Shown: positions 23,694-26,700 of the stretch, piece after piece
Layout of the letters: every line of letters begins with the position of its first letter
Numbering within the stretch: the stretch's first letter is position 1
Origin: Nautilus pompilius
Lineage: Eukaryota; Mollusca; Cephalopoda; Nautilida; Nautilidae
Direction of reading: 5' to 3'
DNA: 64,000 nucleotides
Assembly (NCBI GenBank): GCA_018389105.1
Contig: JACATO010000330.1
Coordinates: 682,001-746,000 of the forward strand
Position numbers and translations under genes: made by a program
The notes under the pieces: generated by a model
Databases searched by the model: none
What the model saw: only the letters and a program-made list of their open reading frames with translations
What the model was told of the DNA's origin: nothing

Positions 23694-23786
23694 CTACATG
23701 GGAACATGGCTGAACAGGTAAGATACTGATTCTCCATTGTGTGTTCTTCTGATAGCTTCAGCCAACATCATTGAAATATCAATGCA
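23694..23786 (-). CDS. PRPS1: PRPS alternative terminal exon 7b
   Basis: Acceptor CTTTCTTTCCAG is followed by 30 codons, [18 protein letters not shown]...VPM, and TAG. It is in the same phase (0) as exon 7a and compatible with exon 6. It encodes residues 289-318, including the [15 protein letters not shown] regulatory-loop segment. It differs from exon 7a at 25 of 93 bases but at only four residues (290 V/I, 295 I/M, 300 V/I, 318 L/M). It lies about 2.0 kb downstream of 7a in transcription order. Confidence 0.88.
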
Positions 23787-26700
23787 CTGGAAAGAAAAGA
23801 AAGCATTTTAAGTTTTCATGTAAAATAGCTGTTACCATGTGGTCATCTACGAATAATAAAACATTTGAAAATAAAGCTTTTAAAGGGCAATAAGTGAAAA
23901 CATGCACAGAGAAAATGGGTTAACCATTAACTAATGACGAACTTCCATGAGATGTTAGGCTTGTCTTTGTGTACAAAAGGCTACCTAGATGGTTCTTAAC
24001 AAGCACTGCCCGTTGTTTTTTTTTCCTGGTAAATACCGTATATTTTACTTACAAACCACAATATTCTAGTATTTTCTCACCTCATCCCTGAACCTTGCTC
24101 TCAGAAGTTTTAATGATGGAAAATGACCTTAAGAATAATAGTTTAAGAAAAAGAAAGAAAAAAACAACAAACTGCCCTATATTTAGCCTTCCTAATCATT
24201 GGCAAACAGTTACCCTCACAAGCATCATCATCGACAACACTAGTGCTGGAGATAGCAGTCCACATACGCAAGGATTGTACGACGATAACTCCAGCTGGCT
24301 TTATAGAGTAAAGAAGTTAGCAGTCAGCTTGCACAATTTCTTTTTTCTTTTAAATAAACATTTTTTTTTACAATTAAAAATGAAGCTGCAGTCTGAAGAA
24401 CTCTTTAGGTAACATCTGTTACTGGTAGTTCCAGTGATGACAGTTCCCAATCACATCAGGCAGAGGGTGGGTGGGTTGCTGCTTGTTGGTAACGAGAATT
24501 CCCACAATCTGAAGGTCCAACTAAAATCCAAAATTTCATTTTAGTATAGACTTCCCCCTCCTCCATAAACAGAATCTAAGAACCCCCCCATTTTTTAAAT
24601 TTAAAAGAAAAGGCTGCACAAAGCTGAATAATAACATTTTTAAAGTCCACACAGCAGTGACGTGGTTGACAATACATAAAAAAAAAAGAAAAAAAGACGA
24701 CATTAGAATCTAACAAAATAATTAGAAGCAACAACCATCAACAACCATGCAGTAGTTTAGTAAAACTAAAACAATAAATTGGCAAACATTAAGACAACTT
24801 CAGAATTAAAATTTGCTGTTAGGCAAGTGCAGACAGAAAGATGCTTGTGATCGTTTGAGGAGCCAGATAAAAACTATCAGCCAAGACTCCAAGATAAATG
24901 TTTCTTTTATCTTTAGGGCAGGCAGGCAGGCAGGAACCCCCAACTATGTCCTTTTTTTTTAAAAAAAAAGAAGCCCCAACTGCAAGTCCAGAGAGAACTG
25001 GACAGTTCCAACTTCAGCTTTGCATTTCCTACAAGAACATATGCTGCTACAGAACCTTTTAAAATTTATTATTAAGCCTCAAAACCCTACCCAGCTGCAC
25101 CACTTCAGTATGACAAGACATCACCATATTCTATCTACAACTCTATCCAAAAAATGGAAACGATGATATAATCAATGATTCAAGCCATGTCAAATTCACG
25201 TACAACGTCATTGATAATGGATTCCCACCATATAGTTTTACTGTGCGAAGACTGCTGACAAATCATTGTGAAACTGAAGGGGAAGATGAGAATTTAATCT
25301 TTTGCTTTTCCTTATGAAATGCCAGTTATGCCCCCAACCAATTCCTTTCCACCCACATTTGGTGCTCCATCTGTCCTCACACTTCAGTTGAGATCGGCCA
25401 CTGGCCCTTCTTTTCATACTCCGCAGTGCAGCCAGCATCTCAGCAGTCTCAGGCGTAGTCGGTTTTCACGTACTGAATATTAGAAACATTTGCTTACCTG
25501 TTTGGGCAGATGTAGGATCTCAGTGTAAAATTTATAGCCATTATGGAGCCAATGAGACAGTCAATGTTACGTACAAAACCAGCTTTGCTGCTCGGGCACC
25601 GTTGGCAGCAGAGTCCCCTGTTTTAGGGGCAACCATTTAAAAAAAAAAAAAAAAACACACACACTGAACCCTGACCCTTCCAGATGGTTTATAAAAAAAT
25701 TATCTGAAGTAATTCTGCCATGCTGAAAGGTTGACAACTTGCCATGCATTCAGTTATCATAACCGCATCACTCAATACAGTACGAGTACACACCAGCAAG
25801 GAGGAGAGCAGAAACCAGGCTACAGAGGTACGTGGGAGAATAGGTAGGAGACAGACTCCCCGTTGTGTGTACGCCGCACTGCTTCAGCTAAAATCATTGA
25901 AATATCGACACACTGAAAATAAAAAAAGAAGAAACTGGAAAACCTGCCATTAACACAAGCAAAAAAAAAGTCCCTCAGGAAATCCTAAGCATCAACGCAA
26001 AATCAGAAAATTTATATTGTACAGTACAGGTGAGCAATTTTATCACTGGTGATACATCTTCTACAGAGGAGTGGTCCCCATCGGTCATCCATTAAGAAAA
26101 AGCAGGGATAAGCAAGCTCTACCTCCTTACCTGTATTTTCGATGCCTGCTTCATGCGTTCTTCCTGAGGAACAGTGTTAGTGATGACCACAGCTTCAAAC
26201 GTAGAATTGTTGATTCTCGTGATGGCTGGCCCAGAAAAAATTCCATGAGTGCAGACTGCATAGACTTTTTGTGCACCAGCCTCCAACAACCTTAAAAGGA
26301 GGAACAATTCACAGGGTTATTCTACACATTTCTCCAAGAACCAGAAATTATCAGAAAAGCTCCTCTTTCCATTATGTCCCACCAGTTCAGGGAAAACTTC
26401 TTTCTCTTCATTGCTTCACCAAGCCTCACGCACGCAAGTTCACAATAGTCTACCCAACTGCACTATAAAGCTTGTGTACCTTTTTTTTTTTAAATTCATT
26501 ATTCCAATTATCCTCCTCCTCCCCTTTCTGATGGTCAACAGGTCTTACAGCCATCCTTCTCCAGATTTTCGTTTTACACCAGGTGTAAAGTATCCAAGCA
26601 CCAAGGAAAGCGTACCACGTAAATCCACAAACAAAATTATTCCAGTCATTTAACATAAAACACCAGTTTGTTAGATATTAGATTCTCCCCCACTTTCACT

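What the first reader, a model, noticed from the sequence alone, without database searches (positions are those of the whole stretch)
23694..25912. Duplicated, alternative last exon in the PRPP synthetase gene
Seen directly: two exons, each with a good acceptor, the same phase and a stop at the same point, both encode residues 289-318 of PRPS. They differ at 25 of 93 bases but at only 4 residues, all conservative, so most changes are silent. That pattern indicates an old duplication with both copies under purifying selection. A poly(A) signal between them (25065-25070) allows 7a to act as a true terminal exon. Known: the C-terminal segment of PRPS carries the loop contributing to the allosteric ADP/phosphate site and subunit contacts. 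Inference: the choice of end, or of its different 3'UTR, could tune feedback control or expression by tissue.
Basis: partly seen in the sequence, partly recalled or inferred. Interest (0 to 1): 0.85.

Follow-up and report, generated by a model that had tools for sequence, protein, structure and literature searches.

The report
Duplicated last exon of PRPS gene
An animal gene for PRPP synthetase, a key enzyme of nucleotide synthesis, carries two old, intact versions of its final coding exon, so the cell could end the same enzyme in two ways with different messenger tails; whether it does so has not been shown.

Summary
A complete 7-exon PRPS gene lies on the minus strand. Exon 6 can join, in phase, to 7a (25912-25820) or 7b (23786-23694); each gives 318 aa, 278/318 identical to human PRPS1. 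The exons differ at 25/93 bases but 4 residues. Silent sites are saturated (pS 0.84, pN 0.108): an old duplication with both copies constrained. Their acceptors rank 8th and 6th of 3812 AGs (recalled matrix).

The poly(A) signal is of a kind common by chance. Exon 7 carries published filament contacts and ADP-site residues, identical in 7a and 7b, so a protein-level switch is not supported beyond an Ile/Val swap at 300, where 60/63 distinct prokaryotic or viral-contig sequences have Ile. I favour mutually exclusive last exons whose main effect is a change of 3'UTR.

Usage is unproven: no RNA data and no related animal genome were available. New member of a known kind (KRAS 4A/4B, CDC42).

The parts
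35056..35177 (-). PRPS coding exon 1 (from ATG)
   Evidence: gene model
33508..33691 (-). PRPS exon 2
   Evidence: Pfam Pribosyltran_N E 4.8e-28 on the ORF that holds it
28965..29063 (-). PRPS exon 3
28561..28685 (-). PRPS exon 4
26891..27064 (-). PRPS exon 5 (its own splice sites score weakly: acceptor rank 420 of 3812, donor rank 334 of 3407)
   Evidence: Pfam Pribosyl_synth and Pribosyltran on the ORF that holds it
26131..26290 (-). PRPS exon 6; ends CAG, phase 0; donor GTAAGG from 26130, rank 3 of 3407 GTs
25820..25912 (-). Exon 7a, coding part: residues 289-318 and TAG; 218-nt upstream intron; acceptor rank 8 of 3812
25498..25819 (-). 7a 3'UTR up to a possible 5' splice site (CAG|GTAAGC, GT at 25497-25496); rank 4 of 3407 minus-strand GTs; 322 nt past the 7a stop
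25293..25298 (-). ATTAAA, candidate poly(A) signal of 7a
25065..25070 (-).
   Evidence: common by chance
23694..23786 (-). Exon 7b, coding part: residues 289-318 and TAG; 2344-nt intron from exon 6; acceptor rank 6 of 3812
22759..22764 (-). AATAAA, candidate poly(A) signal of 7b, 930 nt past its stop

Best explanation
An old tandem duplication gave a PRPS1-type gene two interchangeable last exons. Splicing exon 6 to the near exon 7a and cleaving at a poly(A) site about 0.5-0.75 kb beyond its stop gives one mRNA; skipping 7a and joining exon 6 to 7b gives another with an unrelated 3'UTR. Both encode a full 318-residue enzyme with the same known filament and ADP contacts. The main consequence is therefore most likely at the mRNA level (stability, localisation, translation or tissue choice through the 3'UTR), with at most fine tuning of the protein at residues 290, 295, 300 and 318. 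The strong donor at 25497 may take part in the choice, through U1 binding ahead of the 7a poly(A) sites or splicing from 7a to 7b. Shown: gene model, intact exons, saturated silent divergence, constraint on both. Inferred: that both are used, that the 3'UTR is the functional difference, and the role of the donor.
For: Complete in-phase gene model giving 318 aa either way, aligned end to end with human PRPS1. Silent sites saturated against few protein changes (8 of 11 shared fourfold sites differ). If 13 of the 25 changes had fallen on a neutral copy, those alone would give 4 or fewer aa changes and no stop with P 0.0016-0.0028. The two acceptors are the two best-scoring AGs in 22500-26130. tblastn with all six upstream exons finds each once; other hits have E 0.14 or more, so 7b is not the visible end of a second gene. 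All five filament residues and the three exon-7 ADP-site residues listed for human PRPS2 (PMC10227994, passages) are identical in both forms.
Against: No transcript data, and no related animal genome in any collection I could search, so use of 7b and conservation are untested. Poly(A) signals are frequent by chance. No RNA pairing between intron 6 and the 7a-7b intron beyond shuffles (30 and 41 of 100 shuffles as strong). Motif counts in the UTRs and introns were taken without a control and show nothing decisive. Splice scores rest on recalled matrices.
Confidence: 0.55

Rival explanations
1. Protein-level switch: the 7a and 7b enzymes differ in filament assembly or feedback because residues beside the filament contacts change (V or I at 300, next to R301; I or M at 295, near E298).
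For: Exon 7 carries E298, R301, R302, N305 and E307, the contacts between hexamers, and S308, S310 and F313 at the ADP site (PMC10227994, passages). Position 300 is Ile in 60 of 63 distinct sequences from 69 prokaryotic or viral-contig loci (the others Leu, Met, Thr; no Val), and Ile in human PRPS1; 7a has Val. 7a and 7b differ by 4 residues, each from human by 3.
Against: All contact residues are identical and all four changes are conservative. The sample is no measure of animal variation; R301 itself is Arg in only 6 of 63. No structure of either form was modelled.
Confidence: 0.17
2. Unproductive or UTR-intron splicing: 7a is spliced through the donor at 25497 to 7b, which puts a junction 322 nt past the 7a stop, and the mRNA is degraded by NMD; the choice sets the PRPS level.
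For: CAG|GTAAGC at 25497 ranks 4 of 3407 minus-strand GTs; 15 of 1000 shuffles of the stretch from the 7a stop to AATAAA, and 36 of 1000 of the stretch to 7b, hold as good a donor.
Against: Found after looking. 10 of 124 minus-strand and 8 of 124 plus-strand windows of 2033 bases reach the score (overlapping windows, the minus-strand ones including real donors). NMD would not by itself explain constraint on the 7b protein sequence.
Confidence: 0.1
3. Redundant exons: both are used, or one dominates, with no regulated difference; the duplicate persists by purifying selection on whatever is translated.
For: Near-identical proteins (26 of 30 residues); poly(A) signals frequent by chance.
Against: Persistence to silent saturation with strong acceptors on both is more than neutral redundancy usually allows (inference).
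Confidence: 0.13
4. One exon is a dead relic, or the second copy is an assembly or haplotype artefact.
For: No transcript evidence.
Against: No stop or frame change in either, strong acceptors, silent saturation with constrained protein; allelic or assembly copies would not differ at 84% of silent sites, and the flanks are unrelated.
Confidence: 0.05

Closest known systems
KRAS exons 4A/4B (PMC9882654, a preprint, passages read)
   Same: Two homologous last exons in tandem, chosen by mutually exclusive splicing; [quoted passage not shown]
   Different: 4A and 4B encode different membrane-targeting tails; 7a and 7b encode almost the same peptide, so the difference is likely elsewhere.
CDC42 alternative C-terminal exons (PMC9882654, passages)
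   Same: Alternative 3' coding exons of one gene.
   Different: Distinct tails with distinct membrane targeting.
PRPS1/PRPS2 paralogs of jawed vertebrates (PMC12238573, passages read) and the 9-nt splice variant of human PRPS2 (PMC9221600, passage)
   Same: Two versions of class I PRPS available to one animal; same number of exons (seven) as human PRPS1.
   Different: Vertebrates duplicated a chromosome segment with the whole gene, or vary by three residues elsewhere; here only the last exon is doubled.
Mutually exclusive exons in metabolic enzymes: OGDH 4a/4b (PMC7969005, start of abstract seen in the listing), PKM 9/10 (recalled)
   Same: Mutually exclusive exons used as a switch in a metabolic enzyme.
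   Different: Internal exons; here terminal, so the 3'UTR changes too.

Membership tests
class I PRPS (PRPS1 type) | Full-length homology with conserved domains | tested here: met
   residues 1-318 aligned to 1-318 of human PRPS1, best E 7.1e-188 (7b form); 278/318 identical for either form; Pfam Pribosyltran_N and Pribosyl_synth on two exon ORFs
class I PRPS (PRPS1 type) | Filament and ADP-site residues listed for human PRPS2, exon-7 part | tested here: met
   E298, R301, R302, N305, E307, S308, S310, F313 present in both forms (list from PMC10227994)
tandemly duplicated alternative last exons | Homologous exons side by side, same phase, each with acceptor and stop | tested here: met
tandemly duplicated alternative last exons | Both copies under purifying selection | tested here: met
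   pS 0.84 against pN 0.108, simulations; two sequences only
tandemly duplicated alternative last exons | Each with its own working 3' end | tested here: inconclusive
   AATAAA or ATTAAA after each, at a density common by chance
tandemly duplicated alternative last exons | Both junctions seen in RNA | not testable with these tools
   no transcript data
tandemly duplicated alternative last exons | Conserved between species | not testable with these tools
   no eukaryotic genome collection; scans of the viral and prokaryotic ones found no animal sequence

The most novel reading that the evidence does not exclude
This animal has built a splice switch in the PRPS exon that carries both the inter-hexamer filament contacts and part of the ADP feedback site. 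It makes two PRPS forms (I300 or V300) with different 3'UTRs, and possibly a third, NMD-prone product through the donor at 25497, so that splicing does what gene duplication into PRPS1 and PRPS2 does in jawed vertebrates.
Probability: 0.15. Interest if true: 0.68.

Novelty: new member of a known kind. Interest (0 to 1): 0.45.

Why it matters
PRPS sets the supply of PRPP for nucleotide synthesis. A duplicated terminal exon covering the filament contacts would give a natural pair of forms to test what filament assembly and ADP feedback do in an animal, or a clean case where coding exons are duplicated to exchange 3'UTRs. Three full-text searches joined PRPS names with alternative or duplicated exons: searches found no paper, one search found two (titles on gout and on goose liver; seen in the listing only, not opened). 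Seven further searches dealt with PRPS filaments or with duplicated last exons in general. In what I saw of these I found no report of an alternative last exon in a PRPS gene; the library lacks most subscription papers, and genome annotations were not searched.

Tried and rejected
Second PRPS gene fused or decayed nearby: tblastn of the window with exons 3-6 and both last exons and exons 1-2 found each once, apart from 7a and 7b matching each other, and no further copy; remaining hits have E 0.14 or more.

Related genomes: pattern scans of viral and prokaryotic collections for the exon found nothing. Protein searches gave 2 viral-contig and 32 prokaryotic homologs of 31-48% identity, and 40 of 41 genomes of one phylum had a match (the best 30 of 47 listed matches became loci), useful only for column variation. 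A phage search gave 1022 records, all under 60% identity, not used. No eukaryotic collection is on hand.

RNA pairing as a mutual-exclusion device: not better than shuffles. Rfam (gathering threshold) and tRNA scans of the window: no matches. Pfam was run on 10 of the 38 ORFs of 100 aa or more; only the two PRPS ORFs and one UBE2K ORF passed the curated cut-offs. Standard dN/dS programs: NG86 gave dN 0.117 and no dS (saturated), LWL85 raised an error and YN00 returned nothing, ML gave dN 0.10 and dS 4.9; I rely on raw proportions.

Corrections on the way: exon boundaries were off by one or two bases (exon 3, exon 5) and were fixed; the exon 7 numbers are not affected. One search timed out and was rerun in lighter form.

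Full report
What is there. No genome is held for the window; that it is animal DNA is inference from the intron-rich gene and its neighbour. On the minus strand lies a complete PRPS gene of seven coding exons: 35177-35056, 33691-33508, 29063-28965, 28685-28561, 27064-26891, 26290-26131, and then either 25912-25820 (7a) or 23786-23694 (7b). Both choices give 957 nt and 318 residues, aligned without gaps to human PRPS1 (7b form) and 278 of 318 identical to it (both forms). Human PRPS1 also has seven exons, with residue 309 in exon 7 (PMC9221600, passages).

Observation. 7a and 7b differ at 25 of 93 bases, 18 of them in third positions, and at four residues: V290I, I295M, V300I and L318M (7a then 7b). 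13 are transitions and 12 transversions, and 8 of 11 shared fourfold sites differ. By my count, pS is 0.84 (17.5 of 20.8 sites), beyond what a one-parameter correction can handle, and pN is 0.108 (7.5 of 69.2). With 25 random changes, the fewest amino-acid changes in 20000 simulations from either exon was 9; with 13 random changes, P was 0.0016-0.0028 for 4 or fewer and no stop; with 8 it was 0.12-0.18, so a short spell without constraint is not excluded. Neither copy is likely to have been free of constraint for most of its history. The four differences between the copies are one more than the three that separate each from human PRPS1, which also points to great age, though the shared Cys289 (Val in human) would allow a duplication after the split from vertebrates.

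Splice sites. With recalled matrices, the acceptors of 7b and 7a rank 6th and 8th of 3812 AGs on the minus strand of the window and first and second between 22500 and 26130. The exon 6 donor ranks 3rd of 3407 GTs. By the same scoring some sites of the gene are poor (exon 5: acceptor 420th, donor 334th), so a low rank would not have excluded use. Similarity stops at the exon edges apart from the pyrimidine tract and one base after the stop.

322 nt past the 7a stop lies CAG|GTAAGC (GT at 25497), the fourth best of 3407 GTs on the strand. 15 of 1000 shuffles of the stretch from the stop to AATAAA contain as good a site, 36 of 1000 for the whole stretch to 7b; 10 of 124 and 8 of 124 overlapping windows as long as that whole stretch, on the minus and plus strands, do too. 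This is suggestive, not proof. It makes 7a either a terminal exon or an internal exon of 415 nt followed by a 1711-nt intron. A mRNA 6-7a-7b would stop in 7a with a junction far downstream, a usual trigger of NMD in animals (recalled). It also precedes both candidate 7a poly(A) signals, so U1 bound there could hold them off (recalled mechanism).

Poly(A) signals. ATTAAA at 25298-25293 and AATAAA at 25070-25065 follow 7a; AATAAA at 22764-22759 follows 7b. At the density of this strand, finding AATAAA or ATTAAA within 755 nt has P about 0.83, AATAAA alone 0.61.

Function of the exon. In human PRPS2 filaments the hexamers touch through E298, R301, R302, N305 and E307; R301A and R302A disrupt filaments and nearly abolish activity; ADP in the allosteric site is held by S308, S310 and F313 among others (PMC10227994, passages). 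All eight are in exon 7 and identical in 7a and 7b. What differs is the setting: position 300, beside R301, is Ile in 34 of 34 loci (32 prokaryotic, 2 viral-contig) and in 60 of 63 distinct sequences from 69 such loci (one each Leu, Met and Thr; 30 of the 69 loci come from one phylum), Ile in human PRPS1 and 7b, Val in 7a. Positions 290 and 295 vary in the same sample. R301 does too (Arg in 6 of 63), so the human contact is not general. This is a lead for a mild protein difference, no more.

Reading. The gene has an old pair of alternative last exons. Since the peptide is almost the same, the selected difference is more likely the 3'UTR and the route to it than the enzyme. No RNA pairing between the introns was found beyond shuffles.

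Known kinds. Homologous last exons chosen by splicing are known in KRAS (4A/4B), and alternative 3' exons in CDC42 (PMC9882654, preprint, passages). PRPS1 and PRPS2 of jawed vertebrates arose by duplication of a chromosome segment (PMC12238573, passages). I found no paper on this arrangement in PRPS in the searches named under Why it matters.

Limits. No RNA, no animal relatives, recalled splice matrices, two sequences only for the selection test. Species and number of PRPS genes in it are unknown.

Noticed in passing
window 25498-25497 (-): Near-consensus 5' splice site CAG|GTAAGC in the 3'UTR of 7a, ahead of its candidate poly(A) signals.
   Followed up: partly
window 27045-27043 (-): Codon 184 of PRPS is TGG (Trp) where human PRPS1 has Arg; 0 of 63 distinct prokaryotic or viral-contig homologs have Trp there, 40 have Arg. 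Real change, polymorphism or sequencing error cannot be told.
   Followed up: partly
window 35178-35756: PRPS and a UBE2K gene (plus strand, ATG at 35757; further coding sequence within the ORF 39833-40135) stand head to head with about 580 bases between start codons, which suggests a shared bidirectional promoter.
   Followed up: partly
window 53603-53846 and 61812-62164: Two minisatellites in opposite orientation whose units carry TGACGTCA (the CRE octamer, name recalled) between AG- or CT-rich stretches.
   Followed up: no
   Followed up: no
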